Notes under the pieces: generated by a model
The model's database searches: none
The model's input: the letters and a program-made list of their open reading frames with translations, nothing else
What the model was told of the DNA's origin: nothing
Translations under genes and position numbers: made by a program
NCBI RefSeq assembly: GCF_011947225.1
Contig: NZ_JAATVW010000001.1
Coordinates: 310,001-374,000 of the forward strand
DNA length: 64,000 bases
Source: Planosporangium flavigriseum
GTDB taxonomy: Bacteria; Actinomycetota; Actinomycetes; Mycobacteriales; Micromonosporaceae
Direction of reading: 5' to 3'
Shown: one piece after another, positions 16,719-37,292 of the stretch
Layout: the number at the start of each line of letters is the position of its first letter
Numbering within the stretch: the first letter of the stretch is position 1

Positions 16719-16770
16719 TTGATCACCGAGAGTTTCGGGTGCTTTGACGCCCCAGACTCTCGGTGATCAA
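16719..16770. terminator. palindromic terminator element encoding the FAD-monooxygenase C-terminus
   Basis: TTGATCACCGAGAGT (16719-16733) and ACTCTCGGTGATCAA (16756-16770) are perfect inverses. The element lies between the convergent bsaP and monooxygenase genes and includes the last ~15 codons and stop of the latter. It is homologous to the palindrome at 37211-37260. Confidence 0.8.
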
Positions 16771-17808
16771 TGAACCCAGCAACGCAAGCCGGGCGAGCCG
16801 GTTCCGGCGGGCCAGGCGTGCCACTCGGGGCCGGCAGGCGCGCTGATAATCACGCAGCGCGTCGATCAGTGCGGGGCCGGGTGCGGCATCGCGTACGAGC
16901 GCCTGCAGCGCCACCGCGTCCGCCAGGGCCAGGCACGCGCCCTGTCCCGGATGGTCCGCGAAGGCGTGGGCCGCGTCGCCGAGCAGCACGTACCCGCCAC
17001 CACCGCCGGGGAACACGAACGACTCCGGCATCGGCCGCAGCGCGCTGATCGTCTCCTGGACCAGGTCCTCGGGCTCGGTCGCCGCCAGCAGCGTGCCTAC
17101 GGTCTCGTGCCAGCCCGCGAACCACCGCCGCAGCAGAGCAAGCTGGACCTCCGGCGGCTCCGGGCGGGCCGCGCCCGGCACCGTCGCCATCCAGTAGATG
17201 CCGCCCCGGTTCGACGCCCCGGCCGAACCCCGCTCACCCAGCGAGGCGTGGAGGAACCGCTGCCGCCCGCTCAGCATCTCTCCGGCCACGGGCACGCCGG
17301 CCGGCAACTGCGGCGCTCGGTACCAGGGGATCACCGCCCGCCACGCGACGCGACTGCTGACCGGAACGCTGGCGGGTACGAGTCGCTGCCGCACCGCGCT
17401 GCGCACCCCGTCGGCGGCGACGACCAGGTCGGCCTCCCACGTGTTGCGCCCGTCACCGACTGCGGGCCGGTACTCGTCGGCGCGTACGGTCCGCACCGTC
17501 ACCCCGGTCCGGATGTCGATGCGGTCGCCGAGCCCGGCGACGAGCGCGTCGTGCAGATCTTCGTGGTGCACCACGTACGTCGCCTCACCACCGATCGCCG
17601 GCACCGGCGTCGCGATCGCGTCGAGCCCGTCGTCGAGGCCCAGGGTCCGCAGCGCACGTACCCCGTTCGGCCACAGCAGCAGGGCCGCCCGCCCGAGACG
17701 GATGCGCTCCTCCCGCTCCAGCAGCGTGACCTGCCAGTCCGCCCGGGCCAGGGCGCCGGCGACGGCGAGACCGCCGATGCCGGCGCCGACCACGACCGCC
17801 GTGCGCAT
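16723..17808 (-). CDS. FAD-dependent monooxygenase (PHBH fold)
   Basis: This flavoprotein aromatic-hydroxylase-type enzyme has 361 residues. It has the N-terminal dinucleotide motif VVGAGIGGLAVAGAL, then LVVAADGVRSAVR (the DG motif) and YVLLGDAAHAFADHPGQGACLA (the GD motif). Hydroxylation substrate is unknown. The last residues LITESLGRQSTRNSR come from a palindromic repeat element rather than from the enzyme fold, closely like the tail of the YczE protein at 37257. Confidence 0.85.
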   Translation of the reverse strand: MRTAVVVGAGIGGLAVAGALARADWQVTLLEREERIRLGRAALLLWPNGVRALRTLGLDDGLDAIATPVPAIGGEATYVVHHEDLHDALVAGLGDRIDIRTGVTVRTVRADEYRPAVGDGRNTWEADLVVAADGVRSAVRQRLVPASVPVSSRVAWRAVIPWYRAPQLPAGVPVAGEMLSGRQRFLHASLGERGSAGASNRGGIYWMATVPGAARPEPPEVQLALLRRWFAGWHETVGTLLAATEPEDLVQETISALRPMPESFVFPGGGGGYVLLGDAAHAFADHPGQGACLALADAVALQALVRDAAPGPALIDALRDYQRACRPRVARLARRNRLARLALLGSLITESLGRQSTRNSR

Positions 17809-18906
17809 CTACTGCTTGGAGGGCTGGGCCTCGCCGGCGGTGGCGGGAGCGGCCGGGGTGGTCTTCCCGGGCGCCCCGGCATCGGCTAACTCGACGTCGG
17901 CCGCTCCGTCGGCCGCCTCGGCCTTGGCCGCTCCGTCGGCCGCCGCGGCCTTGGCCGCTCCGTCGGCGCCGGCCGGCACCGGTGCGTCGCTGACCGCCGG
18001 GTCGGCGGCCGTACCGTCGGCCGGCACGACCGTGATCTCGCCGGACTCCGCGACGACCAGGCGCTCCTGCGGGCCGCGTACCCGCAGGAAGTAGATCAGC
18101 GCTCCGACGAAGACGATGATCGACATCCAGTTGTTGACCCGCATGCCGAGGATCTGGTGCGCGTCGTCGCTGCGCATCGCCTCGACCCAGAACCGTCCGA
18201 CGGTGTAGGCCATCACGTAGAGCGCGAACGCCCGGCCACGGCCGAAGCGATAACGCCTGTCCAACTGCCAGACCAGGATCGCCACGCCGAGGCACCACAG
18301 CGACTCGTACAGGAACGTCGGGTGGTACAGCCCGGACTGGACGACCGGGTTGCCCGCGAAGTCGGTCTTTGCCGCGCCTCTCGCCGGGTCCCACTCGTAG
18401 ATCTTGAGTCCCCAGGGCAGCGAGGTCTGCCGGCCGAACAGTTCGTTGTTGAACCAGTTGCCCCAGCGCCCGAGCCCCTGTGCCAGGGGAAGCCCCGGCG
18501 CGAGCGCGTCGGCGACGAACGCCAGCGGGATGCCCATGCGGCGGCAGGCGATCCACGCCCCCACCGCGCCACCGGCAACGGCGCCCCAGATACCCAGGCC
18601 ACCGTTCCAGATCTGGAACGCGCCCATCGGGTGGCCACCCGGACCGAAGTACGCGTCGGGCGACGTGATCACGTGGTAGATCCGCGCGCCGATGATCCCG
18701 AACGGCACCGCCCACACGGCGATGTCGAGGACGGCCCATTCGGGCGCACCGCGGCGGCGCATCCTGATCTCGGTAATGGCACAGGCGGCCACGATGCCGA
18801 GCACGATGCACAGAGCGTACGCCCGGATCGGCACCGGGCCGAGGTGCCACACGCTCTGCGACGGACTCGGGATCGCGGCAAGGGAGGTAAGCGCGACAGG
18901 GGTCAC
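17809..18906 (-). CDS. lgt: prolipoprotein diacylglyceryl transferase
   Basis: This integral membrane enzyme adds diacylglycerol to the lipobox cysteine of prelipoproteins. The Lgt signature GRWGNWFNNELFG is present, with YHPTFLYESLW, several transmembrane helices and the early HLGPVPIRAYAL loop. A ~75-residue Ala/Lys/Asp-rich cytoplasmic tail containing repeated ADGAAKA units follows the last helix, as in other actinobacteria. GTG 18906 is preferred over GTG 18957 because a TAGCGT box ends eight bases upstream and the family begins about here. The nearby CapA lipoproteins are potential clients. Confidence 0.9.
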   Translation of the reverse strand: MTPVALTSLAAIPSPSQSVWHLGPVPIRAYALCIVLGIVAACAITEIRMRRRGAPEWAVLDIAVWAVPFGIIGARIYHVITSPDAYFGPGGHPMGAFQIWNGGLGIWGAVAGGAVGAWIACRRMGIPLAFVADALAPGLPLAQGLGRWGNWFNNELFGRQTSLPWGLKIYEWDPARGAAKTDFAGNPVVQSGLYHPTFLYESLWCLGVAILVWQLDRRYRFGRGRAFALYVMAYTVGRFWVEAMRSDDAHQILGMRVNNWMSIIVFVGALIYFLRVRGPQERLVVAESGEITVVPADGTAADPAVSDAPVPAGADGAAKAAAADGAAKAEAADGAADVELADAGAPGKTTPAAPATAGEAQPSKQ

Positions 18907-18914
18907 AGGTGGAC

Positions 18915-18920
18915 ACGCTA
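18915..18920 (-). promoter_or_regulatory. -10 box of a probable leaderless lgt transcript
   Basis: TAGCGT on the minus strand ends eight bases before GTG 18906. It is divergent from the nudix box at 18974. Confidence 0.45.
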
Positions 18921-18973
18921 CCTCGAACACCCGCGATCTGCGTCGCCCGGTGGTCACGCCGTGGGACCGGTTC

Positions 18974-18979
18974 TAGGCT
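18974..18979 (+). promoter_or_regulatory. -10 box of a probable leaderless nudix-gene transcript
   Basis: TAGGCT ends six bases before ATG 18986, leaving no room for a ribosome binding site. Confidence 0.5.
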
Positions 18980-18985
18980 TCCGAT

Positions 18986-19537
18986 ATGAGCCAGGTCACT
19001 TCGGCGGTCAGCGCCGACGTTAGTTTCATCAGTGACCGCCCGTCCGTATCAGTGGTCACCGCCGTCCTCTCCGACGATGCCGGGCGCCTGCTGTTGTGCC
19101 AGATCCGCCTCGGGGATCCGCTCTGGTCGCTGCCCGGGGGCCGGGTACGCGACAGTGAGAGTCCGATCCACGCGGTCGCCCGCGAGGTCTTCGCCGACAT
19201 CGGCGCGGAGTTCGAACTGATCGACCTGGTGGGCCTCTACCAGCTCACCGGCGACGACGGCGGCGACGACGAGCTACCCGACGTGGCGGTCCACGTCTTC
19301 CGCGGCAAGCTGCGCACCGGCGAGGTCGCGGTGAACTGGCCGGGCCGGGTCCACCGCCTGTCCTGGTACGAGCCGGACGCGCTGCCGGAGTCGCTGACCG
19401 CCACCACGCGGGCGGCCCTGGCCGACGCCGTCGCCGGCCGCTCCGGTGTCGTGCGCACGGTGCGCCGGGATCTGGCGCGCGAGCGGACCGACGTCACCGG
19501 GGCCACCCGGCCGAGCACGGTCGCCGCCGCGGGCTGA
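18986..19537 (+). CDS. Nudix-fold protein with a degenerate Nudix box
   Basis: This 183-residue protein has a Nudix fold start (SVVTAVLSDDAGRLLLCQIR) and the box GGRVRDSESPIHAVAREVFADIGAEF. The GX5EX7RE part is kept, but the metal-binding EE of REUXEEXGU is replaced by Ala-Asp. Catalysis may be weak, shifted to other acids, or lost. Substrate is unknown. The gene sits between the divergent lgt and convergent trpA. Confidence 0.75.
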   Translation: MSQVTSAVSADVSFISDRPSVSVVTAVLSDDAGRLLLCQIRLGDPLWSLPGGRVRDSESPIHAVAREVFADIGAEFELIDLVGLYQLTGDDGGDDELPDVAVHVFRGKLRTGEVAVNWPGRVHRLSWYEPDALPESLTATTRAALADAVAGRSGVVRTVRRDLARERTDVTGATRPSTVAAAG

Positions 19538-19538
19538 C

Positions 19539-19561
19539 CGCCACGCGGGTCAGGCGTGGCG
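19539..19561. terminator. short hairpin between nudix gene and trpA
   Basis: CGCCACGC (19539-19546) pairs with GCGTGGCG (19554-19561), with the trpA stop codon in the loop. It may end both convergent transcripts. Confidence 0.4.
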
Positions 19562-20349
19562 TACGCCCCCGGCGAGGTCGGCGGCGAGCGCACGCAGCGC
19601 GGCGAGGCCCGCATCGAGGTCCGGCGCGCGGAGCAGAGCGTCGACCAGCGCGCTGCCGACGATCACCCCGTCGGCGAAGGACGCCACCTCGGCGGCCTGC
19701 GCTCCGTCGCGCACCCCGAGCCCGACCGAGACCGGCAGGGCCGGGTTGGCCGACAGCCGCCGCACCCGGTCCACCAGCACGGGCGCGGCAGTCGAGGTCT
19801 GGTCGCGGGCACCGGTGACGCCCATGACGCTGCTGGCGTACACGAAGCCACGGCACGCCGCGGTGGTCATGCGTACCCGCTCGTCGGTCGACGACGGCGC
19901 CACCAGGAACACCCGGTCGAGGCCGTGCTCGTCGGAGGCGGCGATCCACTCGTCGGCCTCGTCCGGGATCAGGTCGGGGGTGATGAGACCGGCGCCGCCC
20001 GCGGCGGCGAGGTCACGGGCGAACGCGGAGACGCCGTAGCGCTCGATCGGGTTCCAGTACGACATGACCAGCACGGACGCGCCGGCGTCGGCGACGGCGG
20101 CGACGGTGCGGAGCACGTCCGCCGCGCGTACGCCGCCGGCGAGGGCGGCTTCCGCGGCGCGCTGGATGGTCGGGCCGTCCATGACCGGGTCGGAGTACGG
20201 GAAGCCGACCTCGACGACGTCGACGCCGGCCTCGACCATGGCCCGGACGGCGGCGATCCCGCCGTCGACGGTCGGGAACCCGGCCGGCAGGTAGCCGACC
20301 AGGACGGCGCGGCCCTCGGCCTTCGCCTTCTCAAAAGCGATACTGACGC

Positions 20350-20353
<4 letters not shown>
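19550..20353 (-). CDS. trpA: tryptophan synthase alpha chain
   Basis: TrpA cleaves indole-3-glycerol phosphate to indole, which passes to TrpB (267 residues). It shows [13 protein letters not shown], the catalytic Glu in [19 protein letters not shown], and the catalytic Asp in [12 protein letters not shown]; the phosphate loop is VGLGVRDG and [12 protein letters not shown] 20353 overlaps the trpB stop by four bases; longer frames reaching 21157 are trpB shadow. Confidence 0.95.
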
Positions 20354-21554
<1,201 letters not shown>

Positions 21555-21558
<4 letters not shown>

Positions 21559-22418
21559 CGGGTCGGCCTCGGCGTCGCCGGGTGGCTGCCGGCGGTCACC
21601 AGCTCAGCCACCGCCTCCCGCGGACTCTTGTGGGTCACCAGGCCCTCCCCGACCAGTACCGCGTCGGCACCGGCCGACGCGTAGCGAATCAGGTCGTGCG
21701 GGCCCCGCACCCCCGACTCCGCGATCTTGACGACGTGCCCCGGCAAGCCGGGGGCGATCCGCTCGAACACCGAGCGGTCCACCTCGAGGGTACGCAGGTT
21801 GCGGGCGTTGACGCCGATCACGCGGGCACCGGCGTCCAGGGCCCGGTCGGCTTCCTCCTCGTTGTGCACCTCGACGAGCGCCGTCATGCCCAGGCTCTCG
21901 ACGCGGTCGAGCAGGCCGGTCAGCGTGTTCTGGTCCAGCGCGGCGACGATCAGCAGGATGACGTCGGCGCCGTACGCGCGGGCCTCGTGCACCTGGTAGC
22001 TGGAGACGACGAAGTCCTTGCGCAGCAACGGAACGTCCACCACGGCCCGCACCGCCGCGAAGTCTTCGAGGCTGCCGCCGAACCAGCGCCCCTCGGTCAG
22101 CACGCTGATACAGCGCGCGCCGCCCGCCGCGTACTCCTGGGCCAGCTCTGCCGGGTCCGGAATCTCCGCGAGCTGCCCCTTGGAGGGCGACGAGCGCTTG
22201 ACCTCCGCGATCACCCCCACACCGGGGGCGCGCAGGATCGTGTACGCGTCCTTGGCTGGCGGCGCGGCGGCGGCCAGCTCTTTGATCTGCTCCAGCGGAA
22301 CCCGCTCCTGGCGCACGGCCACGTCTTCACGTACGCCAGCCAGAATCTCATCCAGCACGTGGCCGGACTCGGGCTGGAAACGCTCGGGGTTCTGCGGACT
22401 CCCCTCTTCCGCTGTCAT
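21555..22418 (-). CDS. trpC: indole-3-glycerol phosphate synthase
   Basis: This TIM-barrel enzyme ring-closes CdRP to indoleglycerol phosphate (287 residues). Typical blocks are [14 protein letters not shown] with the catalytic Lys, [23 protein letters not shown] and [11 protein letters not shown], then ESGVRG. ATG 22418 is chosen: a TAGCAT box ends seven bases before it, suggesting a leaderless internal promoter. There is an 89-base gap to the upstream membrane-protein gene. Confidence 0.95.
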
Positions 22419-22425
22419 GCGCCCG

Positions 22426-22431
22426 ATGCTA
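22426..22431 (-). promoter_or_regulatory. -10 box of a probable leaderless trpC transcript
   Basis: TAGCAT on the minus strand ends seven bases before ATG 22418. It would uncouple trpCBA from trpE. Confidence 0.45.
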
Positions 22432-22507
22432 AGCGGAGTCCGAACGGGGTAGGTGTCCGGGGTATGGGCGTCGTCACCACAGCGCGTACGGCATAATGTC
22501 AAGCCCC

Positions 22508-23011
22508 CTATTGAGTGGGGTCCTCACCACGGTCGAGAGCGTCCCAGATCTGCGCCTCGCCGCGCGGCGCGGTCGCCGTTCCCGCCGGCCGTTCGTACCG
22601 GGCGCTCATGCCCGGCCACGCCCGCCCGTACACCATCGTCAACACGCCTGAGCCGGCGACGAGCAGGCCACCCAGCGCGGTCAGCACCGGCCAGGCCGGC
22701 GTGGCGACCCCCAGCTTCGACAGCGCGCCGGCGGCCAGCCCAAACCCCGACAACACCAGCAGTACGCCCACCGCGGCGCGCACCAGCCCGCGGGTGGCGA
22801 GCAGGGCGCCCGCCCCGGCGAGCGCGACCAGGGCGAGGGCGGACAACCACGGCAGCAGCGCGGCGCCGGTCTTCGCCTCGTTCAGGGCCGGCAGCGGCGC
22901 CGGGCGCACCACCGTGACGTGCGTCCAGGTGCGGCCGGCGGCCAGCAGCGCCAGCCCGGCACCTGCGGCACAGGCCAGGACCGCGACGGCACGTACCCGG
23001 TTGGGGCTCAT
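22508..23011 (-). CDS. Trp biosynthesis-associated membrane protein (TIGR02234 type)
   Basis: This 167-residue protein has four predicted transmembrane helices (first near residues 8-26, then three between 53 and 128) and an extracellular loop after helix 1. The closing [11 protein letters not shown] is typical of the family. It lies between trpE and trpC, overlapping trpE by four bases, an arrangement conserved in actinobacteria. Its biochemical role is not established. Confidence 0.85.
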
Positions 23012-24534
23012 CGCGCCGGCCGCAGCGTCTCCGCCGCCGTGATCGCGGCGAGCACCGCGGCAGCCTTGTTACGGGTCTCGGTCTCCTCGGCCTCCGGGTT
23101 GGAGTCGGCCACGATGCCCGCCCCGGCCGACACGTACGCCATGCCGTCACGGAACAGCGCGGTACGGATGGCGATGGCGGTGTCCATGTCCCCGCCGAAC
23201 CCGAAGTAGCCCACGACACCGCCGTACACGCCGCGCCGGACCGGCTCCAACTCCTCGATGATCTCCATCGCCCGGACCTTGGGCGCCCCGGACAGGGTGC
23301 CGGCCGGGAACGTGGCGGCGAGGGTGTCGAACGCCGAGTACCGGTCGGCCAGCTCACCGACGACCGTGCTGACGATGTGCATCACGTGGCTGTACCGCTC
23401 GACGGTGGCGAACTCGGGCACCTCCACGGTGCCCGGCTTGCACACCCGGCCGAGGTCGTTGCGGGCCAGGTCGACCAGCATCACGTGCTCGGAGCGCTCC
23501 TTGGGGTCGGCGAGCAACTGCGCCGCGAGCGCGGCGTCCTCGGCCGGCGTCGCGCCCCGCCAGCGGGTACCCGCGATCGGATGCAGCATCGCCCGCCGAC
23601 CGGTGACCTTCACGTGCACCTCGGGAGACGACCCGACGATGTCGAAGTCGTCGAAGCGCAACAGGTACATGTACGGGCTGGGGTTGGAGGTGCGCAGCAC
23701 CCGGTACACGTCGAGCGGGTCGGCGTCGGTCGGGCGCTCGAAGCGCTGGGCGAGCACGATCTGGAAGCACTCGCCGGCCCGGATCGCCTCCTTGGCCACC
23801 TCAACGGCCTTCGGGTACTCGCCGGGGGCCGTCCGGCTCGTCACGCCGGCGACATCGGCGCGGTCCACCGTGGACACCATCGGCGGCGTAGGGCGCGACA
23901 GGGCGGTCGTCATCGCGTCGAGCCGGCCGATGGCCTGGTGGTAGGCGGCCTTGAGGTCGTCGTCGGACGGATCGACCGGCAGCACCGCGTTGGCGATGAG
24001 GACCGCAGCGCCGGCGAAATGGTCGAGCGCGACCAGGTCGGTCGCGAGCATCATGCCCAGCGCCGGCTGCCCCAGGTCGTCCTCGGCGAGCTCGGGCAGC
24101 CGCTCGAACCGGCGGACCATGTCGTACGAGATGAAGCCGACCATCCCGCCGGACAGCGGCGGCAGGTCGATCTCGTCGGGCTCCGGGGCGTGCAGCGCCG
24201 CGACCGTCGCGCGCAGCACCTCGGCCGGGTCACCGGCGGTGGGCACGCCGTCAGGCGGGGTACCCAGCCAGTGGGCGCCGCCACCCTGTTCCACGAGCGT
24301 GGCGGCGCTGCGCACGCCGATGAACGAGTACCGCGACCAGACCGCCCCGGCCGATCCGGCCCCCTGCTCGGCCGATTCCAGCAGGAACGTCCCCGGCCCG
24401 CCGGCCAGCTTGCGGTAGACCCCGACCGGCGTCTCGCCGTCGGCGAGCAGCCGCCGCGTCACGGGCACCACCCGCCGGGTACGCGCCAGCGCGCGGAAGG
24501 TCGCCTCGTCGGGTACGACGGCGCCGGTCGTCAT
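23008..24534 (-). CDS. trpE: anthranilate synthase component I
   Basis: Chorismate to anthranilate, with ammonia from a TrpG partner not found in this window. The 508-residue product has the chorismate-binding core: [64 protein letters not shown] and the closing AGAGIVADS. The N-terminal [10 protein letters not shown] region belongs to the Trp-binding feedback site. It overlaps hisI by four bases. Confidence 0.95.
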
Positions 24535-24893
24535 GCCTTCTCCTCCCGGAGGACGTCGAAGAAGCAGCTGTGCTCGCCCGTGTGGCAGGCCGCTCCGACC
24601 TGCTCCACGGTCAGCAGCAGGGCGTCGCCGTCGCAGTCGAGCGCCACCGAGCGCACGTACTGATGGTGCCCGGACGTGTCACCCTTCACCCAGTACTCCC
24701 GTCGGCTGCGCGACCAGTAGGTCGCCCGGCCGGTGGTCAGGGTGCGCCGCAGCGCCTCGTCGTCCATCCACGCCAGCATCAGGACGGTGCCGGTGGCGGC
24801 TTCCTGGACGATCGCGGGAATCAGGCCGGCCGGATCGCGCTTGAGCCGCGTCGCGATGGCCGGATCGAGCTGCGTGTCGGGTTCTAGCTGCAC
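24531..24893 (-). CDS. hisI: phosphoribosyl-AMP cyclohydrolase
   Basis: Opens the purine ring of PR-AMP in histidine synthesis; single-domain HisI of about 120 residues without a HisE fusion. The metal-binding parts are ALDCDGDAL and [10 protein letters not shown], with the core [25 protein letters not shown] 24893 is preferred; GTG/ATG at 24926 would add 11 residues. It heads the trpE unit, while the other his genes lie at 37300-42772. Confidence 0.92.
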
Positions 24894-25139
24894 AGTGCCC
24901 GATTCTCTCCCATCCGCCGGGTGCACCGGACGCCCGCCCCCACAGCCCCTTTTGCGGGGGTGTGCGGCAGGGACATCAGCGGTAATTTGTGGGGGCGCAT
25001 CGGCATGCGTGAGATCCGCACCGAAGCGTTGGCGCGTCCAGATCTAACCCGAGGCGATGGCATCTGCCTGCCCGGCTCCCCACGAGCAGTGCTGCCCCGG
25101 CGGCGCGAGTCCGCCGGACGAGTGGACATAAGGAGCATC

Positions 25140-25877
25140 ATGGACCCGGATACGACGGGGCACCCCTTCGGCGACACCTTGCCCTCCCAACGGGCGGTGG
25201 GCACAGCGGGGATACCGAGCCAGCGCCCCCCGTGGGAACCGCCCACCGAGCCATGGCACGAGCAGCCCAGCCCGTTCGCGTTCCGTCCCGCGCACTCGGC
25301 GCCGGCCGACGAGGAGCCTGCGGCCGGTCCCGCGCCGTGGGAGGCCGAGCCCGCGCCGTGGGAGGCCGAGCCCGCGCCGTGGGAGGCCGAGCCCGCCGCA
25401 GACGTCGAGCAGGTGACCGTCACCGCCCCGGCGCGCGATGCGGAGGCCGACGTCGACGAAGCGGACATCGAGCAGGCCGAAGCAGCCGAGCCTGCCGAGG
25501 TCGCTTGGGTGGCCGAGCCGGACGAAACCGATGAACCGGAGACCGGGTCGGACTCAGCGCCGCCGTCGGCCGGCGCGCTGCGCCCCGGCGACGTACCCGA
25601 GACACGCATCACGCTGTGGGGAGACGCCTCCGCCGAGGCCGAGGCGTTCCGCGCCCGCATCCGTGCGGCCGGGACCCTGTTCGTCGACGACCCGAACTTC
25701 GCCGTGACGGCGGCGGCCGCCGTCGTGACCGACGCGGTCGACGCCCTCGCCGCGGCGCTGCAACGCCAGCACGCCGACCTGGATCCCCGGCGCACGTCCG
25801 ACAATCCGGACACCGAGTCGCTACGGGTGGCGATCCGGCGGTACCGGGAGTTTCTCGACCGCGTACTCGCGCTCTGA
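25140..25877 (+). CDS. acidic repeat-containing hypothetical protein
   Basis: This 245-residue soluble protein has two parts. Residues 1-~145 are Pro/Glu/Ala-rich, strongly acidic and probably disordered, with three exact APWEAEP units (63-85). The C-terminal ~90 residues are helical (RIRAAGTLFVDDPNFAVTAA, DAVDALAAALQRQHADL, SLRVAIRRYREFLDRVLAL) and may form a small bundle. ATG 25140 follows AAGGAGCATC. I recognise no family. The terminator at 25885 follows. Confidence 0.65.
   Translation: MDPDTTGHPFGDTLPSQRAVGTAGIPSQRPPWEPPTEPWHEQPSPFAFRPAHSAPADEEPAAGPAPWEAEPAPWEAEPAPWEAEPAADVEQVTVTAPARDAEADVDEADIEQAEAAEPAEVAWVAEPDETDEPETGSDSAPPSAGALRPGDVPETRITLWGDASAEAEAFRARIRAAGTLFVDDPNFAVTAAAAVVTDAVDALAAALQRQHADLDPRRTSDNPDTESLRVAIRRYREFLDRVLAL
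25329..25391 (+). repeat. three 21-bp tandem repeats inside a gene
   Basis: CCCGCGCCGTGGGAGGCCGA plus one base is repeated three times without change, encoding APWEAEP units. Exact nucleotide identity suggests recent expansion by slippage. Confidence 0.9.
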
Positions 25878-25884
25878 TCCTTTA

Positions 25885-25932
25885 GATCTTGGAGAGCAAG
25901 GCATCAATATTGGTGCCTTGCTCTCCAAGATC
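25885..25932. terminator. 19-bp perfect hairpin terminator
   Basis: Arms 25885-25903 (GATCTTGGAGAGCAAGGCA) and 25914-25932 are exact inverses around a 10-base loop. It lies directly after the acidic repeat gene and before the ABC operon. Confidence 0.8.
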
Positions 25933-26012
25933 CGGACAGCCGTACATGTCGATCTTGTAGCTGATCACACTCCCCGTCACATCGTCTTGTGCCGATCAAA
26001 GAATTCACCTAC

Positions 26013-26034
26013 CGTTGATTTCAACGCTCGTTGA
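26013..26034. promoter_or_regulatory. candidate TetR operator: three alternating CGTTGA half-sites
   Basis: The sequence CGTTGA-TT-TCAACG-CT-CGTTGA gives two overlapping 6-2-6 inverted repeats just upstream of the ABC ATPase start at 26050. The TetR gene is the last gene of the same operon, so autoregulation is likely. Confidence 0.55.
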
Positions 26035-26049
26035 GTTTCGGAGGCCACC

Positions 26050-27509: not shown

Positions 27510-27523
27510 GAACAAGGAGAGGC

Positions 27524-28635: not shown

Positions 28636-28671
28636 GCCACAAGGGTGCACCTTTGGCGCAAAGGGCCCCGG

Positions 28672-30450
28672 TTACGACGCGCGGGTCTGTTCCAACCAGG
28701 ACGCGTACAGCCGCCCGTACACGGACTCGGGGTCGCGGACGAGCTCGTCGTGCGGTCCGCGCTGGACGACCCGTCCGCGGTCGACGACGAGCACCTCGTC
28801 GGCGGCCTGCGCGGTGGACAGCCGGTGCGCGATCGCGATGGTGGTCCGCCCCCGGGTGACCGCGTCGAGGGTGCGCTGCAGCCGTACCTCGGTGGCCGGG
28901 TCGACCGCGCTGGTCGCCTCGTCGAGCACGAGCAGGTCGGGGTCGGCCACGTACGCCCGGGCGAGGGCCACCAGCTGGCGCTCCCCCACCGACAGCGCCT
29001 CGCCGCGCTCGCCGACCTGCGTGGAAAGGCCCTCGACGAGCCCGTCGACCCAGTCGGCGAGCCCCAGTTCGGCGAAGGCCAGGTACAGGTCCTCGTCGCT
29101 GATGTCCGGGCGGGCGAAGCGGACGTTGTCGGCGACGCTCGCGTCGAACAGGAACCCGTCCTGCGGCACCATCACCACGCGGCGGCGCAGCGACGCGAAG
29201 CGTACGTCGGTCAGCGCGACGCCGGACAGCAGCACCTGCCCACTCGTGGGGTCCATGAGCCGGGTGAGCAGCTTGGCGAAGGTGGTCTTGCCGCTGCCGG
29301 TCTCCCCGACGACGGCCACCCTGATCTGTGCCGGGATCGCGAGGTCGACGTCGCTCAAGACCTCAGGACCGCCGGGGTACGCGAAGCGGACGTGGGAGAA
29401 CCGGACGTCGATCGGGCCGGGTGGCAGATCGAGGCCTGCCTCGCCGGGGTCGGCCACGTCCGGGGCCTGGTCGAGCACATCGAGCACGCGGCGCCAGCCG
29501 GCGATCGCGTTCTGCGCCTCGTTGAGCACCTCGGTGGCGATCTGCACCGGCTGGACGAACAGCGTGACCAGGAACAGGAACGCGGTCAGCTGACCCACGG
29601 TCAGGTGCCCACCGATCCCGAGCAGCACACCGACGACGACCACGGCCGCGGTCGCCAGGCCGGACGCCCACTCCCCCGCCGTGAAGCTGGTGACGCTGGT
29701 CCGCAGCGCCGTGAACTGGGCGCGCCGGTTGTCCTCGATCGCGGCGTCGAGCCGGGACTCGGTCCGCCGGCGCACCCCGTACGCCCGGATCACGGCCGCG
29801 CCGACGACGCTCTCGGAGATGGCGGCGAGCATCGTGCCGACGTGGGCACGCACGACCCCGTACGCGACGGTCAGCCGCTTCTGGAAGTGCCGGATGACGA
29901 ACACGACCGGGGCGAACGCGGCGTAGACGACCAGGGTGAGCTGCCAGGAGTACGTGGCCATGACCACCGTGGTGATGGTGAGCTGGCCGAGGCTGACCAG
30001 CAGGATCACCCCGCCCCACTGCAGGAACTGGCTCATCTGGTCGACGTCGCCGGTCACCCGGGACACCAGCGAGCCGCGCCGCTCGCTCTGCTGGTGCAGC
30101 ATCGACAGGTCGTGGATGTGGCGGAAGGTCCTCGTCCGGATGCCCGCGAGGGCCGTCTCGCTGACCGTGTACAGGCGGACGTTCATCAGGTACGCGCTGA
30201 TCATCGTCACCAGCAGCACGAGGGCGGTGACGGCGACGACGCCCGCGATGGCGCCGAGGTCCGGGCCGCCCTGCACGAGCAGGCCGTGGTCGATGCCCCG
30301 CTGGACCGCGATGGGGACGGCCACCCGGCCGGCCGTCGCGAAGAAAGCGAGCACGAGGGTGCCGGCCAGCCCGCTGCGCAGTTCGGGCGACATCGCGAGC
30401 CCGCGCCGCAGGGTGGACCAGGTGGACGCCTGGCTCACGGCGGTCGTCAT
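28672..30450 (-). CDS. ABC exporter half-transporter with canonical catalytic Glu (heterodimer subunit)
   Basis: This 592-residue type IV exporter subunit has a six-helix membrane domain (~1-310) then an ATPase: Walker A GETGSGKTT, Walker B LLVLDEATSAVDP, switch His in IAIAHRLSTA. The signature is LSVGERQLV instead of LSGGQ. The upstream partner overlaps by four bases and has the opposite set of changes. The pair therefore probably forms a heterodimer with one consensus and one degenerate ATP site, as in TM287/288 or BmrCD. Confidence 0.88.
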   Translation of the reverse strand: MTTAVSQASTWSTLRRGLAMSPELRSGLAGTLVLAFFATAGRVAVPIAVQRGIDHGLLVQGGPDLGAIAGVVAVTALVLLVTMISAYLMNVRLYTVSETALAGIRTRTFRHIHDLSMLHQQSERRGSLVSRVTGDVDQMSQFLQWGGVILLVSLGQLTITTVVMATYSWQLTLVVYAAFAPVVFVIRHFQKRLTVAYGVVRAHVGTMLAAISESVVGAAVIRAYGVRRRTESRLDAAIEDNRRAQFTALRTSVTSFTAGEWASGLATAAVVVVGVLLGIGGHLTVGQLTAFLFLVTLFVQPVQIATEVLNEAQNAIAGWRRVLDVLDQAPDVADPGEAGLDLPPGPIDVRFSHVRFAYPGGPEVLSDVDLAIPAQIRVAVVGETGSGKTTFAKLLTRLMDPTSGQVLLSGVALTDVRFASLRRRVVMVPQDGFLFDASVADNVRFARPDISDEDLYLAFAELGLADWVDGLVEGLSTQVGERGEALSVGERQLVALARAYVADPDLLVLDEATSAVDPATEVRLQRTLDAVTRGRTTIAIAHRLSTAQAADEVLVVDRGRVVQRGPHDELVRDPESVYGRLYASWLEQTRAS

Positions 30451-32345
30451 GAGATCCCCTTGTTGTTGGTTGCGGAGGGGTTGTTGCTGTTCGCCGGTGG
30501 CTCGTCGTAGGCCTTCTCGCGCTCCCGCTCCGCGTCGGCCTTCTCGTACGCGGTGACCAGGTCGGCGTAACCGGGGACGGTCGCCAGCAGCTCGGCATGG
30601 GTGCCGTGGGCGACGACCCGGCCGTGCTCGACGTAGACGACCTCGTCGGCGAGCGCGATGGTGGCCCGGCGGTAGGCGACGACCAGCACGGAGGCTCCGG
30701 CCCCGCCGTCGCGCAGGGACGACAGGATCGCCGCCTCCACGCGCGGGTCGACCGCGCTGGTGGCGTCGTCGAGGATGAGCAGCCGGGGGCCGCCGGCGAG
30801 GGCCCTGGCCAGGGTCAGCCGCTGGCGCTGGCCGCCCGACAGCGACGTGCCCCGCTCACCGACCGTGGTGTCGAGCCCCTGCGGCAGTGCGGACACGAAC
30901 GACTCAGCCTGGGCCACCCGCAGCGCCGCCCAGGCACCTGCGTCGTCGACGCCCGGCCGGTCGAGGGTGATGTTGCCCCGGACCGTGTCGTCGAAGACGA
31001 ACGGCACCTGCGGCACCAGCGCGACGGTCGCGGCGAGCGACTCGTGGGCCAGGTCCGACACGTCGACCCCGTCGAGGTACACGCTGCCAGCGGTCGGGTC
31101 GACCAGCCGGGCGGCGAGCGAGGCAATCGTGGACTTGCCCGATCCGGTCGGCCCGACGAGCGCGACCGTACGCCCGGCCGGCACCTCGAACGTCACGCCG
31201 TGCAGCACGGGCTGCCCTAACGAGGGTGCCGGCTCGCTCGTGCCTGACGGGCCGCGACCCGGCACCGTCGCGGCGTACGCGAAGTCGACGTTCTCGAAGC
31301 GCAGGGTCGCCGGCTTGGGATCGGCCGCCAGCTCGGCCTCCCCGTACGCCATGTCGCCGGTGGCGGTCAGCACGTTCTGTACCCGTTCCCACCCGACGGC
31401 GCTGCGCGGCAACTCGGCGAGCACCCAGCCGATCGCCCGTACCGGGAACGCCAGCACGGTGAACAGGAAGGCCACGCTCACAAGGTCGGCAACGGTGATC
31501 GCGCCCTGACGCAGCCGCCAGGCGCCGACGAGCAGCACGGTCAGGGTGCCGAAGCTGGGCAGCGCGTCCAGGGCCGGGTCGAACAGGCCACGGATCCGGC
31601 CCACCCGGATCATCGCGTCGCGCAGTTCGCCGGCCTTCGCCGCGAACCGCTGCGTCTCGTCGCCCTCCCGCCCCATCGTCTTGACCACGAGCGCGCCGTC
31701 GAAGCTCTCGTGGGCGACCGCGGAGACCTCGGCCCGCAGCCGCTGGGCGGCCGACACCCGCGGCGAGATCAGCCGCGAGTACACGATGTTCATGCCCAGC
31801 AGCGCGAGAAAGACCCCGACCCCGACGAGCGCGAGCACCCAGTCGGTGAAGAACAGCGACGCGACCGCGACGAACAGCATGACGACGGTCCCGACGGCGA
31901 ACGGCAGCGGTGCGATCGGGTAGAAGGCCGCCTCGACGTCGGCGTTCGCGTTGGACAGGAGGGTGCCGGTGGCGTTGCGGTGGTGCCAGGCCAGGGGAAG
32001 TTCCAGGTACCGGCGGGTGACGCGACGGCGGTAGGTGGCCTGCAGGCGGAACTGCATCGCGCCGGCACCGAGCCGCCGGCCGAACAGGCCCAGCACCTTG
32101 GCCGCACTGACACCGAAGATCACCCCGGCGCCGCCGGCCAGGGCCGCCACGCCGACGTGACGGTGGTCGATCGCCGGTACGACCACGTGGCCGATGATGG
32201 CGCCGACGATGTACGCCCCGGCGATGATGAGGACGCTGAACAGGACGCTGCCGGCCACGCCGATCGAGAAGAGTCGGGGCTGCTCGCGGATGCTGTGACC
32301 GAGTACCCGAAATCCCTTGCCGAGCACTCGGTCGCTATTCAACAC
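30447..32345 (-). CDS. ABC exporter half-transporter with degenerate catalytic residues (heterodimer subunit)
   Basis: This 632-residue partner has a membrane domain then an ATPase with Walker A GPTGSGKST and intact signature LSGGQRQRL. Walker B reads LLILDDATSAVDP (Glu to Asp) and the switch His is Tyr in VVAYRRATIA. GTG 32345 is preceded by AGGGGAG. The C-terminus has a charged, Asn-rich tail (DEPPANSNNPSATNNKG). The substrate is unknown; drugs, peptides or lipids are possible. Confidence 0.88.
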   Translation of the reverse strand: MLNSDRVLGKGFRVLGHSIREQPRLFSIGVAGSVLFSVLIIAGAYIVGAIIGHVVVPAIDHRHVGVAALAGGAGVIFGVSAAKVLGLFGRRLGAGAMQFRLQATYRRRVTRRYLELPLAWHHRNATGTLLSNANADVEAAFYPIAPLPFAVGTVVMLFVAVASLFFTDWVLALVGVGVFLALLGMNIVYSRLISPRVSAAQRLRAEVSAVAHESFDGALVVKTMGREGDETQRFAAKAGELRDAMIRVGRIRGLFDPALDALPSFGTLTVLLVGAWRLRQGAITVADLVSVAFLFTVLAFPVRAIGWVLAELPRSAVGWERVQNVLTATGDMAYGEAELAADPKPATLRFENVDFAYAATVPGRGPSGTSEPAPSLGQPVLHGVTFEVPAGRTVALVGPTGSGKSTIASLAARLVDPTAGSVYLDGVDVSDLAHESLAATVALVPQVPFVFDDTVRGNITLDRPGVDDAGAWAALRVAQAESFVSALPQGLDTTVGERGTSLSGGQRQRLTLARALAGGPRLLILDDATSAVDPRVEAAILSSLRDGGAGASVLVVAYRRATIALADEVVYVEHGRVVAHGTHAELLATVPGYADLVTAYEKADAEREREKAYDEPPANSNNPSATNNKGIS

Positions 32346-32450
32346 CGCTCCCCTGGTAAGTCATCGCTAGCGGTGTCCATCCTTACCAGACGCGGCCGGA
32401 TCCGCACCTTCGTTACCAACTGTGTCCGGCGTCACATGATGATCTACGTC

Positions 32451-32456
32451 TATGAT
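32451..32456 (+). promoter_or_regulatory. -10 box of a probable leaderless TIGR03085 transcript
   Basis: TATGAT ends seven bases before ATG 32464 and contains the alternative upstream ATG 32452, which is therefore unlikely to be the start. Confidence 0.5.
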
Positions 32457-32463
32457 GGGGTGC

Positions 32464-33096
32464 ATGCCGAGGTACGCCCCGATGGAGCGCGACGCCCTCG
32501 CCGACGCCCTGCTGGAGGTGGGGCCGGACGCGCCGACCCTCTGCGACGGCTGGACGGCGCGCGACCTGGCCGCCCACGTGGCCCTGCGCGACCGCCGCCC
32601 CGACGCCGTCGTCGGCATCCTGGCCAGACCGCTCGCCGGCTGGACCGAGCGGGTCCAGCGCGGCTACCGCGACGGCCACGACTACACCGAACTGGTCGAC
32701 CTGGTGCGCCACCCGCCGAGATGGAGCCCGATGAGCCTGGCGCCCCTGGACGAGGCCGCCAACACCGTCGAGTTCTTCGTGCATACCGAGGACGTCCGCC
32801 GGGGCGAACCCGGCTGGCAGCCCCGCCCCCTCGACCCGGGCCTGGCGGCCCGGCTGTGGCGGCGGGCAGCGACGCTGGCCCGCCTCAACCTTCGCCGCTT
32901 CGACGCGACCGTCCGCGTCGAGGCGCCCGGTCACGGCGCGTTCACGGTGGGCGACGGGACACCCGCGGTCACCCTGCGCGGCGACCCGGGTGAGCTCATT
33001 CTCTTCTTCTACGGGCGGCAACGTGCGACCCTGGTCGATACCAGCGGCCCGGACGACCTGGTCGACGAAGTGCGTAGAGCACGATTCGGCCTCTAG
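32464..33096 (+). CDS. TIGR03085-type (mycothiol-dependent isomerase-like / DinB fold) protein
   Basis: This 210-residue protein starts MPRYAPMERDALADALLEVG and has the helical-bundle signature PTLCDGWTARDLAAHVALRD, with metal-ligand-type His in AAHV and EFFVHTEDVRRG. Members of this actinobacterial family resemble mycothiol-dependent maleylpyruvate isomerase and bind a divalent metal. The reaction is unknown. The start fits a leaderless promoter. It is divergent from the ABC exporter. Confidence 0.8.
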   Translation: MPRYAPMERDALADALLEVGPDAPTLCDGWTARDLAAHVALRDRRPDAVVGILARPLAGWTERVQRGYRDGHDYTELVDLVRHPPRWSPMSLAPLDEAANTVEFFVHTEDVRRGEPGWQPRPLDPGLAARLWRRAATLARLNLRRFDATVRVEAPGHGAFTVGDGTPAVTLRGDPGELILFFYGRQRATLVDTSGPDDLVDEVRRARFGL

Positions 33097-33190
33097 GCCA
33101 GACTGGACTAGCCGAAAGGCCCCACCGCAACTTACTCTTCGGTAACACAGGCCGTGACCCTCATCACGAACACCCCTGCGGAGGCCACCG

Positions 33191-35014
<1,824 letters not shown>

Positions 35015-35022
35015 CGCCAAAG

Positions 35023-35054
35023 GTGCAGGGGAGGGCGAACGCCCTCCCCTGCAC
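35023..35054. terminator. bidirectional terminator hairpin
   Basis: GTGCAGGGGAGGGC and GCCCTCCCCTGCAC form a perfect 14-bp stem with a GAAC loop between the convergent acyl-CoA synthetase and MocR genes. Confidence 0.85.
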
Positions 35055-35059
35055 GCTGC

Positions 35060-36508
35060 TCAGGCGACGATCGCGGGGGCGCGCAGTTGGCGTACCGGCA
35101 CCCGGTCGAGGCTCTCCCGGGCCTGCGCCAGCCGCCGGACCGCCTCGACCAGGTCGGCCTCCGGCAGGGTGTAGGGCAGCCGCAGGAACCGCTCCATCGT
35201 GCCGTCGGCGCCGAACCGGGGCCCCGCCGCCACCCGTACGCCCAGCTCCTCCACGGCGCGGGCGAGGGCGCTGGAGACCGGCGCGTCCAGCTCGACCCAC
35301 AGGCTCAAGCCCCCGTGCGGTACGACGAACCGCCACTCGGGCAGGTGCGCGCGCAGCGCGGCGACGAGGGTGTCCCGGCGCGCGGTCAGCTCGGCTCGGC
35401 GCGCCGCCACCACCTGCTGACGTGCGCCCAGCAGGTGCGCCCCGACGAGCTGGTCGAGCACTGGCGAGGACATGTCGACCGCGACCCGCGCGGCGGCCAG
35501 CCGGGCCGTCACCGAGGTGGCCGCCCGTACCCAGCCGATACGCAGGCCACCCCAGTACGGCTTGCTCATCCCACCGATGGTGAGCACCCGGGCCGCCCGG
35601 TCGAACGTCGCCACCGCCGGGGGCAGCTCCGGCCCGTCCAGCCGCAGGTCGGCGAAGGACTCGTCGACGACCACGTCGGTGCCCACCGCGTGCGCCGCGG
35701 CCGGCAGCCGCTCCCGCAGCGCCGTCTCCATGAGATGGCCGGTCGGGTTGTGGAAGTCGGGGATCAGGTACGCCAGCCGCGCCCGGGCGTCCCGGACGGT
35801 GCTCAGCAGCAGGTCAGAGTCCCAGCCGGCATCGCCCAGGGCGTACCCGATGACGCGGGCCCGGCTGGCGACGACCGCGGTGAGGGCGTTGGGGTACGTC
35901 GGCGCCTCCAGCAGTACGCGCTGTCCGGGCGCGACGAGCAGCCGCAGCACCAGGTCGAGGGCGTGCGACACGCCGGCCGTGATCATGATCTGGTCGGGCA
36001 GGGTGGGCAGCCCCCGCTCGGTGTACTCGCGGGCGACGGCCTCACGCAGCACCGCCAGGCCCATCGGGTGGTAGCCGGCGCCGGTGAGGTAGGGCGGCAG
36101 GTCCTCGGCTGCCGCGGCGACCGCGGCGGTCAGTTCGGGCGGAGCCGGTAGCGCCGCCTGTCCGAGGTCGATGGTGTCGTCGTCCTCGATCGGCCCCCAC
36201 AGCCCGGAGGTGCCGACACGGTGCCCGCTGGGCAGCGCGGTCCAGCTGCCGGCGCCCCGCCGGCTGGTCAGGTGGCCGGACTCGCGCAGCGTCCGGTACG
36301 CGGCGGTCACGGTGGTACGGCTCAGGCCGAGCGCCTGGGCCAGCTCGCGCTCGGCCGGCAGGCGTACGCCGAGCGCCAGCCGCCCGTCGGTGAGCAGGCC
36401 ACGGACGGCGGCGGCGAGTCGCGCATACTCGGGCCCGCCCGCTCGGCCTGCGCCCTGCCACCCGCCGAGAAGCCGCGCTAGTTGAGACCCACGAACGGTG
36501 CCAGCCAA
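35060..36508 (-). CDS. MocR-type GntR/aminotransferase fusion regulator
   Basis: This regulator of about 482 residues has an N-terminal winged helix (residues ~25-90: GVRLPAERELAQALGLSRTT, YRTLRESGHLTSRRGAGSW) fused to a fold-type I aminotransferase-like domain. PLP-site features are visible: AGVSHALDLVLRLL, IPDFHNPTGHLM, VVVDESFADLRL and the PLP lysine in GGMSKPYWGGLRIGW. The start is uncertain: TTG 36508 has GGGGGGA suitably spaced; TTG 36523 or GTG 36514 are alternatives. It is divergent from a YczE-type gene, a pairing seen repeatedly for this MocR group. Confidence 0.88.
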   Translation of the reverse strand: MAGTVRGSQLARLLGGWQGAGRAGGPEYARLAAAVRGLLTDGRLALGVRLPAERELAQALGLSRTTVTAAYRTLRESGHLTSRRGAGSWTALPSGHRVGTSGLWGPIEDDDTIDLGQAALPAPPELTAAVAAAAEDLPPYLTGAGYHPMGLAVLREAVAREYTERGLPTLPDQIMITAGVSHALDLVLRLLVAPGQRVLLEAPTYPNALTAVVASRARVIGYALGDAGWDSDLLLSTVRDARARLAYLIPDFHNPTGHLMETALRERLPAAAHAVGTDVVVDESFADLRLDGPELPPAVATFDRAARVLTIGGMSKPYWGGLRIGWVRAATSVTARLAAARVAVDMSSPVLDQLVGAHLLGARQQVVAARRAELTARRDTLVAALRAHLPEWRFVVPHGGLSLWVELDAPVSSALARAVEELGVRVAAGPRFGADGTMERFLRLPYTLPEADLVEAVRRLAQARESLDRVPVRQLRAPAIVA

Positions 36509-36523
36509 GGCCACTCCCCCCAA

Positions 36524-36551
36524 ATTGGCTCTATCTACATCCCCGATTGGC
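36524..36551. promoter_or_regulatory. candidate MocR operator: direct repeats of ATTGGC
   Basis: ATTGGC occurs at 36524-36529 and 36546-36551 in the same orientation, 22 bp apart (two helical turns), between the divergent mocR and yczE genes. MocR proteins typically bind direct repeats. The 10-mer GATTGGCCTT recurs at 36639-36648 inside yczE. Confidence 0.5.
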
Positions 36552-36567
36552 CTTCAGAGTGGCATGC

Positions 36568-37257
36568 ATGGGCTCCACTAGCAACTCTGTAGCCATACCA
36601 CTGCGGCACCAGTTCGTACGCCGGTTCATCCAGTTACAGATTGGCCTTGTCTGCTACGGGCTCAGCATGGCGCTCATGATTCAGGCCCGGCTCGGCCTGG
36701 ATCCGTGGGACGTGTTCCACCAGGGCATCGCCCGGCGCACCGGCCTGCGGTTCGGCCTCGTGGTCATCGCCACCGGCGTACTCGTCCTGCTGCTGTGGAT
36801 CCCGCTGCGCCAGCGCCCCGGCATCGGCACGATCTCCAACGTGATCGTGATCGGGCTGGCGGTCGACGCGGCGCTCCTGGTGCTGCCCGCGCCCGACCCG
36901 CTCGCCGCCCGGTGGGCCTTCCTGATCGGCGGCATCGTGCTCAACGGGATCGCCACCGGCCTGTACATCGGCGCCCGACTCGGCCCGGGCCCTCGCGACG
37001 GACTGATGACCGGGTACGTGGCCCGCACCGGGGGTTCGATCCGGCTCGTACGCACGACGATCGAGGTGACCGTCCTGGTCGTCGGCTGGCTGCTGGGTGG
37101 CACTGTCGGCTGGGCGACACTGCTGTACGCGGTGGCGATCGGGCCGCTGGCCCACGTCTTCATCCCACTGTTCTCGGTCCGCGCGCCTGCGGTTGAAACC
37201 GACGTCCGCATGATCACCCTGAGTTTTGGGCGCTATGACACCCAAAACTCAGGGTGA
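36568..37257 (+). CDS. YczE/YitT-type membrane protein
   Basis: This 229-residue protein has five to six helices and the typical segments MIQARLGLDPWDVFHQGIAR, ISNVIVIGLAVDA and ATGLYIGARLGPGPRDGLMTG. The last 15 residues, MITLSFGRYDTQNSG, are encoded by a palindromic terminator element and are probably not part of the fold. Being divergent from mocR suggests MocR control, perhaps in response to a PLP or amino-compound signal. TTG 36547 is another possible start. Transport substrate is unknown. Confidence 0.8.
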   Translation: MGSTSNSVAIPLRHQFVRRFIQLQIGLVCYGLSMALMIQARLGLDPWDVFHQGIARRTGLRFGLVVIATGVLVLLLWIPLRQRPGIGTISNVIVIGLAVDAALLVLPAPDPLAARWAFLIGGIVLNGIATGLYIGARLGPGPRDGLMTGYVARTGGSIRLVRTTIEVTVLVVGWLLGGTVGWATLLYAVAIGPLAHVFIPLFSVRAPAVETDVRMITLSFGRYDTQNSG

Positions 37258-37260
37258 TCA
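37211..37260. terminator. palindromic terminator element encoding the YczE C-terminus
   Basis: Arms 37211-37230 (TGATCACCCTGAGTTTTGGG) and 37241-37260 are perfect 20-bp inverses with a 10-base loop. It includes the YczE stop codon. It is 50 bp long, like the homologous element at 16719-16770. Confidence 0.85.
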
Positions 37261-37292
37261 CCGAGATTCGCGATACAGACTCTCGGTGATCA
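37255..37292. terminator. second palindrome, overlapping the first
   Basis: TGATCACCGAGA (37255-37266) pairs with TCTCGGTGATCA (37281-37292). Its left arm shares TGATCA with the first hairpin, so the two stems cannot both form fully. It lies downstream of hisF on the minus strand. Confidence 0.75.

What the first reader, a model, noticed from the sequence alone, without database searches (positions are those of the whole stretch)
16719..37292. Homologous ~50-bp palindromes at two gene ends give unrelated proteins the same C-terminal tail
The 50-bp palindrome at the end of the FAD monooxygenase (minus strand, within 16720-16769) and the one at the end of the YczE-type gene (plus strand, 37211-37260) are homologous. 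Both start TGATCACC, carry a GGGCG centre and end GGTGATCA, and both stems keep pairing although the bases differ, so changes are compensated. Both supply the terminal codons and the stop. The tails are LITESLGRQSTRNSR and MITLSFGRYDTQNSG, alike at most positions. A third relative is at 37255-37292. This looks like a dispersed palindromic element that serves as terminator and has been captured as coding sequence.
Basis: partly seen in the sequence, partly recalled or inferred. Interest (0 to 1): 0.78.

Follow-up and report, generated by a model that had tools for sequence, protein, structure and literature searches.

The report
Dispersed stop-and-hairpin palindromes at gene ends
A soil actinomycete and its relatives scatter near-perfect 50-base palindromes at the ends of genes, where they can fold into hairpins and often supply the gene's stop signal; the places partly persist between species while the letters inside are replaced.

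Summary
The palindromes at 16720-16769, 37211-37260 and 37255-37292 belong to a dispersed family with 58 model places (55 at E 1e-4 or better) in this Planosporangium-type genome, not counting the 38-nt copy (a lower bound). The three same-genus genomes held also carry it. Palindromes with the same CATGATC...GATCATG ends but other interiors are expanded in at least three further Micromonosporaceae genera. None of the 58 lies wholly inside a called gene; 28 lie between convergent genes. Stems vary with compensation. The stop codon is often the element's own TGA. The shared tail is a rarer case, 4 of 82 gene ends, where a frame runs on to the far-arm TGA; orthologues lack these tails.

Unexpected: at gene ends bearing an element in two species, the elements are not clearly more alike than random cross-species pairs (39 pairs, 0.664 versus 0.647), and species have their own arm dialects. 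A U-tract is nearly always missing.

Best filing: a new REP-like variant, GATC-bounded, present without a RAYT transposase in two carriers, probably defining mRNA 3' ends in both directions. Function and spreading are inferred.

The parts
16720..16769 (.). Element 1: 50-nt GATC-bounded palindrome, ACC dialect, between a small plus-strand frame (ends 16706) and the FAD monooxygenase gene (minus)
   Evidence: (RNA fold of 16710-16779: -36.9 kcal/mol, z -6.5)
16723..17808 (-). FAD-binding monooxygenase gene, 361 aa; its last 14 codons, part of the one before, and the stop lie inside element 1 (tail LITESLGRQSTRNSR)
   Evidence: PF01494
16524..16706 (+). Small Cys-rich frame directly after bioB (15526-16521), perhaps the biotin synthase auxiliary protein (name recalled, not tested); convergent with the monooxygenase
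   Evidence: read from the sequence; bioB by Pfam domains; the gene-call script did not call this small frame
37211..37260 (.). Element 2: 50-nt palindrome, perfect 20-bp arms with a 10-nt loop, between convergent genes
37255..37292 (.). Element 3: 38-nt shortened relative that abuts element 2 and shares its terminal TGATCA
36667..37257 (+).
37300..38061 (-). hisF (PF00977), convergent partner at elements 2 and 3; a GGDEF gene lies between the two genes in G001 and G002
25885..25932 (.). Member of a second GATC-bounded 48-nt palindrome family (GATCTTGG...CCAAGATC), 7 nt after a plus-strand gene end

Best explanation
These are copies of a REP-like, genus-wide family of dispersed palindromic DNA repeats that live at gene 3' ends. 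Each is typically CATGATC - about 40 bp of inverted repeat with a short loop - GATCATG. SHOWN: many dispersed copies; no model place wholly inside a called gene; excess between convergent genes; compensated stems; the outer TGATCA offers a TGA stop to either flanking gene, and in elements 1 and 2 there are stops in all three frames on at least one strand; genes often end on the element; positions are partly shared between species while the letters at shared positions differ and each species has its own common arm dialect; gains and losses occur. INFERRED: transcribed from either side, the element forms a very stable hairpin directly behind the stop codon that fixes the mRNA 3' end, either by hairpin termination without a U-tract, as proposed for some Streptomyces hairpins, or by blocking 3'-to-5' exonucleases after Rho-dependent termination, and so separates convergent genes. 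INFERRED: new copies arise by copying within a genome by an unknown agent, and old copies are lost or overwritten. The similar protein tails are a side effect: when a deletion or stop loss lets a frame run into an element, one of the three frames is open up to the far-arm TGA and encodes the same roughly 15 residues.
For: Copy number: 20 exact-pattern sites, 0 for the reversed control, 58 model places. Position: 28 convergent, 26 tandem, 4 divergent, none wholly inside; 49 of 58 have a gene 3' end within 30 nt or inside the element, median distance 7.5 nt over 82 ends; background convergent share 42 of 212 neighbour pairs, p about 1e-6. Hairpins with z from -6.5 to -9.4 in the 4 stretches folded. 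Covariation. Stop codons: in 115 listed elements of four species, 55 of 181 adjoining gene ends use the first TGA, 9 end further inside, 117 before it. Dialects: arm triplet after TGATC is ACC in 40 of 82 (G000) and 47 of 82 (G002) arms; GCG, ACG or GTG in 34 of 36 (G001) and AGG or ACG in 27 of 30 (G003), both without ACC. Same gene end, different letters: 39 pairs, mean identity 0.664, null 0.647, 158 of 2000 random pairings reach it; best own-species copy at least 0.8 for 96 of 115; nearest copy in the same species for 72 of 115, shuffled maximum 55. Palindromes with another interior stand at the same spot in 3 of 24 site-by-genome tests, as if structure rather than letters were kept. In G081 many of the listed copies are near-identical, asymmetric loop included.
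Against: No transcript data. No U-tract as a rule. Arms and loop are conserved as sequence within a species, which hairpin function alone does not require. The dialect split is not clean: the best match in another species has the same median identity, 0.86, as the best own-species copy. Mismatches oriented to the transcript do not clearly favour G-U over A-C in tandem sites (23 versus 17). No mobilising enzyme was found; empty sites give no consistent target duplication.
Confidence: 0.7

Rival explanations
1. Selfish miniature mobile element: the palindromes spread by a transposase in trans, and gene ends are simply where insertions do least harm. Any effect on transcripts is incidental.
For: Near-identical copies in G081 and three in G000; dialects; sites filled here and empty in relatives; abutting copies that share one TGATCA; unrelated interiors with the same GATC...GATC bounds.
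Against: Compensated changes keep the stems paired; palindromes with another interior occupy some of the same ends in other species (3 of 24 tests); no RAYT found in the draft genomes G001 and G002; no consistent target-site duplication.
Confidence: 0.35
2. Binding sites of a sequence-specific protein (nucleoid or insulator type) whose preference drifts by species, so that all sites follow it and form dialects, as DNA uptake sequences follow ComP in Neisseriaceae.
For: Arms and loop are conserved as sequence within a species and differ between species; the outer GATC is nearly constant.
Against: Half-sites outside palindromes are essentially absent: TGATCACCGAGAG occurs 16 times within listed elements and 4 times outside, all 4 in degenerate or longer palindromes (bases mostly fetched around elements). 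Confinement to gene 3' ends is not needed for a DNA-binding role.
Confidence: 0.15
3. Ordinary rho-independent terminators that look alike by chance or by common base composition.
For: Position and hairpin stability; one place has a run of seven T.
Against: Sequence identity including the loop, copy number, dialects and general lack of a U-tract.
Confidence: 0.03
4. The element is an adaptive protein-coding module that adds a useful C-terminal tail.
For: Two unrelated proteins end in similar 15-residue tails.
Against: Only 4 of 82 gene ends in this genome carry the tail; orthologues in three species lack it; it is predicted by frame alone.
Confidence: 0.03

Closest known systems
REP elements tagged GTAG or CGTC (Di Nocera et al. 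2013, PMC3733652; abstract, one searched passage and the genome-distribution section read)
   Same: Dispersed short palindromes in many copies, downstream of genes, predominantly between convergent and tandem genes, close to stop codons; the paper reports that GTAG REP termini often provide the TAG stop codon, and that some REPs lie within ORFs.
   Different: About 50 bp, nearly symmetric, bounded on both sides by GATC rather than carrying an unpaired GTAG or CGTC at one end; found in actinomycetes (a word search of that paper found no Actinobacteria, Micromonospora, Salinispora or Streptomyces); no RAYT found in two carriers; interior differs between species at shared gene ends.
Inverted DNA uptake sequences as terminators in Neisseria and Pasteurellaceae (Kingsford et al. 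2007, PMC1852404; Frye et al. 2013, PMC3630211; passages read)
   Same: A repeated motif in inverted pairs at gene ends, enriched tail-to-tail, with dialects.
   Different: No solo motif copies seen here, far fewer copies, no T-tail as a rule.
U-poor hairpin terminators of Streptomyces (TERMITe study, PMC12207403; passages read)
   Same: Long, very stable hairpins behind genes with few U.
   Different: The passages read do not describe them as one repeated sequence family; ours are dispersed repeats.
Rickettsia palindromic elements inside proteins (recalled; mentioned in the section read of PMC3733652)
   Same: A palindromic repeat read as protein.
   Different: Here reading is confined to the last codons and is a minority case.

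Membership tests
REP (GTAG/CGTC-tagged) | Dispersed short palindromes, extragenic, mostly downstream of genes | tested here: met
   58 places, 0 wholly inside called genes; 49 of 58 with a gene 3' end within 30 nt or inside the element
REP (GTAG/CGTC-tagged) | Unpaired GTAG or CGTC tag at one end of the hairpin | tested here: not met
   Both ends are paired TGATC/GATCA in the alignments of 19 and 18 copies
REP (GTAG/CGTC-tagged) | RAYT (Y1) transposase partner (claimed for GTAG REPs) | tested here: not met
   PF01797: 1 match in G000, 2 in G003, 0 in G001 and G002, which carry many elements (draft assemblies)
Canonical intrinsic terminator | Stable hairpin shortly after the stop codon | tested here: met
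Canonical intrinsic terminator | U-tract after the hairpin | tested here: not met
   Mean 1.75 T per 10 nt, 5 or more T in 2 of 181, no TTTT; at the 58 places 4 of 82 tails have 5 or more T or TTTT, one a run of seven T
Canonical intrinsic terminator | Termination activity | not testable with these tools
   Needs Term-seq or a reporter
DNA uptake sequence terminator | Motif abundant as single copies genome-wide | tested here: not met
   324,816 bases scanned, mostly fetched around elements: 16 half-sites in listed elements, 4 outside, all in degenerate or longer palindromes
MITE-like transposable element | Target-site duplication at filled versus empty sites | tested here: inconclusive
   One search flagged 16 comparisons as empty; 2 of these do hold a diverged element. 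Of the other 14, 8 hold one GATC in the compared gap and 6 none; remnants of old elements could explain some of the 8
MITE-like transposable element | Many near-identical copies in one genome | tested here: met
   G081: 100 pattern matches, of which the part listed contains many that differ by a few bases; three near-identical copies in G000

The most novel reading that the evidence does not exclude
Micromonosporaceae carry a third large class of tagged palindromes beside GTAG and CGTC REPs: GATC-bounded palindromes, GATC - 40 to 42 bp inverted repeat - GATC, with several unrelated interiors. They are copied into GATC-containing stop-codon sites by an unknown machinery (the GATC would be a palindromic target duplication) and serve as combined two-strand translation-stop and transcript-end modules. 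Occupied gene ends are repeatedly re-filled by the currently active dialect, giving position conservation without sequence conservation.
Probability: 0.25. Interest if true: 0.75.

Novelty: new variant of a known kind. Interest (0 to 1): 0.52.

Why it matters
How high-GC actinomycetes, which rarely have U-tracts, end their transcripts is unsettled, and how short palindromic repeats spread and stay uniform in bacteria has been debated since REPs (gene conversion, transposition or selection). A family whose places partly persist across species while its letters are replaced gives a natural test: single elements could be deleted or swapped between dialects in a laboratory actinomycete. It also warns annotators: similar C-terminal tails in unrelated proteins can be read-through of a dispersed repeat.

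Tried and rejected
RAYT mobilisation: Pfam PF01797 not found in two of four carriers. DNA-uptake-type motif: no solo half-sites. Phage origin: two patterns gave 0 stretches in viral contigs. Known RNA family: at gathering thresholds Rfam finds only three tRNAs and a ZTP riboswitch in the window. GATC target-site duplication: attractive from one empty site (G001 at the monooxygenase end has a single TGATCAC), from the shared GATC of abutting copies and from the 48-nt spacing, but 6 of 14 empty comparisons hold no GATC, so left open. G-U bias as an RNA-level signature: not decisive. An adaptive coding tail: rejected by orthologues.

Rows dropped or spurious: of the 20 exact-pattern sites, C2:181278 (57 nt) is not of this family and the 38-nt copy was left out of the model alignment (18 sequences used). 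The set of 115 elements takes only TGATC...GATCA ends with at least 72% pairing. Of its 41 G000 rows, 39 are among the 58 places, one is the 38-nt copy, and one (L025:3186-3228) is a chance match inside a gene that I had not removed. L326 repeats the two places of L320, so the 20 rows are 18 distinct places. In G136, 2 of the 3 loci looked at were inside genes and not palindromes, and the three G045 loci are poor palindromes, so raw counts overstate some genomes.

I found no description of this family in searches (listings) of an open-access library only. Also opened and not relied on: passages of PMC12306157, PMC2267715 and PMC4681348, abstract of PMC5381666.
Full report
CHECK. The three palindromes are present at the stated coordinates. 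Their pattern occurs 3 times in the window and never in 100 shuffles. The inverted-repeat scan lists the two 50-mers third and fifth of 24. Both flanking reading frames end in the far-arm TGA, and the tails share 8 of 15 residues.

A FAMILY IN THE GENOME. The exact pattern gives 20 places in the 5.72-Mb genome and none for the reversed control: eighteen 50-mers, the 38-mer of the window, and one unrelated 57-nt stretch. In the 18 50-mers the outer TGATCACC is fixed by the search, but inner pairs vary with compensation: 8 of 22 pairs have changes on both sides, in 32 cells, against a shuffled mean of 13.4; sliding the partners gives at most 9. A covariance model finds 109 matches on both strands at E 1 or better, i.e. 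58 places, 55 of them at 1e-4 or better, with 150 of 3167 candidates scored. The wider family includes arms such as TGATCACGGAGACTTTTCCG, TGATCCTGAAG and TGATCATGAAGG.

WHERE THEY SIT. With my own gene calls, 0 of 58 places are wholly inside a gene; 28 are between convergent genes, 26 between tandem genes, 4 between divergent ones. In 212 neighbour pairs of the window and nine 20-kb blocks, 42 are convergent (p about 1e-6). 49 of 58 have a gene 3' end within 30 nt or inside the element. Of 82 adjoining gene ends, 22 use the element's first TGA as stop, 3 the central TGA, 1 another stop inside, 4 the far-arm TGA, and 52 end before the element. The 4 include both genes of the finding. Over 115 listed elements of four species, 55 of 181 ends stop at the first TGA, 9 further inside and 117 before the element. 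TGA at positions 1, 26 and 45 of the 50-mer lies in three different frames. Stops in all three frames occur on the top strand in 16 of 39 elements of 48-52 nt in this genome, 11 of 40 in G002, 7 of 15 in G003 and 1 of 18 in G001: common, not a rule.

THE TAILS. Orthologues of the monooxygenase in G001, G002 and G003 are 402, 402 and 404 aa and share a different C-terminus. Similarity to this genome's 361-aa protein ends near its residues 340-345, so roughly the last 40-45 residues of the orthologues are gone here, besides an 18-residue internal gap. What follows is the element. The gene before element 2 ends differently in all four species. In G001 and G002 a GGDEF gene stands between it and hisF. 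The tails are therefore what a frame reads when it falls into the repeat.

RELATIVES. The three same-genus genomes have 80, 120 and 42 model matches (both strands), another genus 1. The exact family pattern occurs in one named species, Planosporangium mesophilum (14 stretches; the window's own genome may be left out there). Arms form dialects: ACC is the commonest in G000 and G002, GCG and ACG in G001, AGG and ACG in G003. At 39 gene-end pairs bearing elements in two species, identity averages 0.664, not clearly above random cross-species pairing (0.647; 158 of 2000), and 5 of 39 reach 0.8. The nearest copy is in the same species for 72 of 115, shuffled maximum 55. Against a clean split: the best match in another species has the same median identity, 0.86, as the best own-species copy. 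Yet 12 of 41 G002 elements stand at gene ends that also carry one among the fetched G000 sites. Eight G000 places (the two sites 0.3 kb apart in L027 counted once) were followed in three relatives, 24 tests, counting a palindrome from a score of 14: 6 had a family element, 3 a palindrome with another interior (the G003 one still ends in TGATCACG on one side), 13 none, and 2 could not be mapped. So places are partly kept, letters are exchanged, and gains and losses are common.

A WIDER CLASS. CATGATC-N34-46-GATCATG was counted in 300 genomes of the family. Most have 0-3 and the reversed control 0-1, but some have far more: G081 100, G110 142, G121 91, G137 116, G057 53. In G081 many of the listed copies are near-identical, loop included, and three listed copies abut another CATGATC-bounded repeat and share the end sequence, as elements 2 and 3 do here. 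Of 18 distinct places from six genomes, 9 are convergent and 2, both in G136, inside genes. In 613 kb of contiguous blocks, 56 intergenic palindromes of score 15 or more were found; 27 have symmetric GATC ends, 18 of these spanning exactly 48 nt, including a second family GATCTTGG...CCAAGATC with a copy at window 25885-25932 (some blocks were chosen because they hold elements).

MECHANISM. Hairpin energies are extreme (z -6.5 to -9.4 in four folded stretches, one of them holding elements 2 and 3 together), but the tails are G-rich: mean 1.75 T in 10 nt, 5 or more T in 2 of 181. One place, C4:98330, does have seven T after its hairpin. Other intergenic palindromes near gene ends in these genomes are also U-poor (mean 2.4 T, 32 tails), and Streptomyces terminators mapped by Term-seq have only 3-4 U in 10 nt (PMC12207403, passages). 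I infer 3'-end formation in both directions, with termination and exonuclease-stop variants not separable here. Copying within genomes is inferred from near-identical copies with unrelated flanks; the agent is unknown. Y1 transposases were not found in two carriers. Of 14 truly empty comparisons, 8 hold one GATC in the gap and 6 none, so target duplication is open.

COMPARISON. GTAG and CGTC REPs behave similarly, down to supplying stop codons (PMC3733652, abstract, a passage and one section), but the tag, the size and the RAYT partner differ. Inverted uptake sequences in Neisseria are the best parallel for dialects at gene ends (passages), but solo copies are missing here. I file it as a new, GATC-bounded variant of REP-like repeats.

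Noticed in passing
window 38055-38135: An ~80-nt stretch between hisF and hisA has many dispersed copies, about 73-93% identical, in G001, G002 and G003: a different repeat family.
   Followed up: no
window 25885-25932; L337:972-1019, L337:17164-17211, L338:13471-13518, L347:5620-5669; G001 L170:17434-17481, L332:11759-11808: Second palindrome family GATCTTGG...CCAAGATC with the same 48-nt GATC-to-GATC span; in L338 and L170 a second copy lies about 1 kb away.
   Followed up: partly
L331:16433-16512, L342:14299-14372, L348:2697-2777: A 74-81-nt palindrome class in G001 and G000, with GATC at or near both ends in two of the three and at one end of the third.
   Followed up: no
L128:2506-2560: A 14-nt unit CATGATCCTGAAGA repeated about four times at the left end of one element, as if the arm had slipped or been copied in tandem.
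   Followed up: no
G006 C1:6382753-6382874: Two 39-nt TGATCACC...GGTGATCA pattern matches of another interior, about 260 and 350 nt beyond the matched end of the monooxygenase orthologue in a different genus.
   Followed up: no
window 10639-10727: ZTP (pfl) riboswitch upstream of the gene at 10757.
   Followed up: no
window 36221-36311: ARAGORN calls a tRNA-Gly (ccc) antisense inside the gene at 35060-36514; Rfam does not list it, so it is probably spurious.
   Followed up: no
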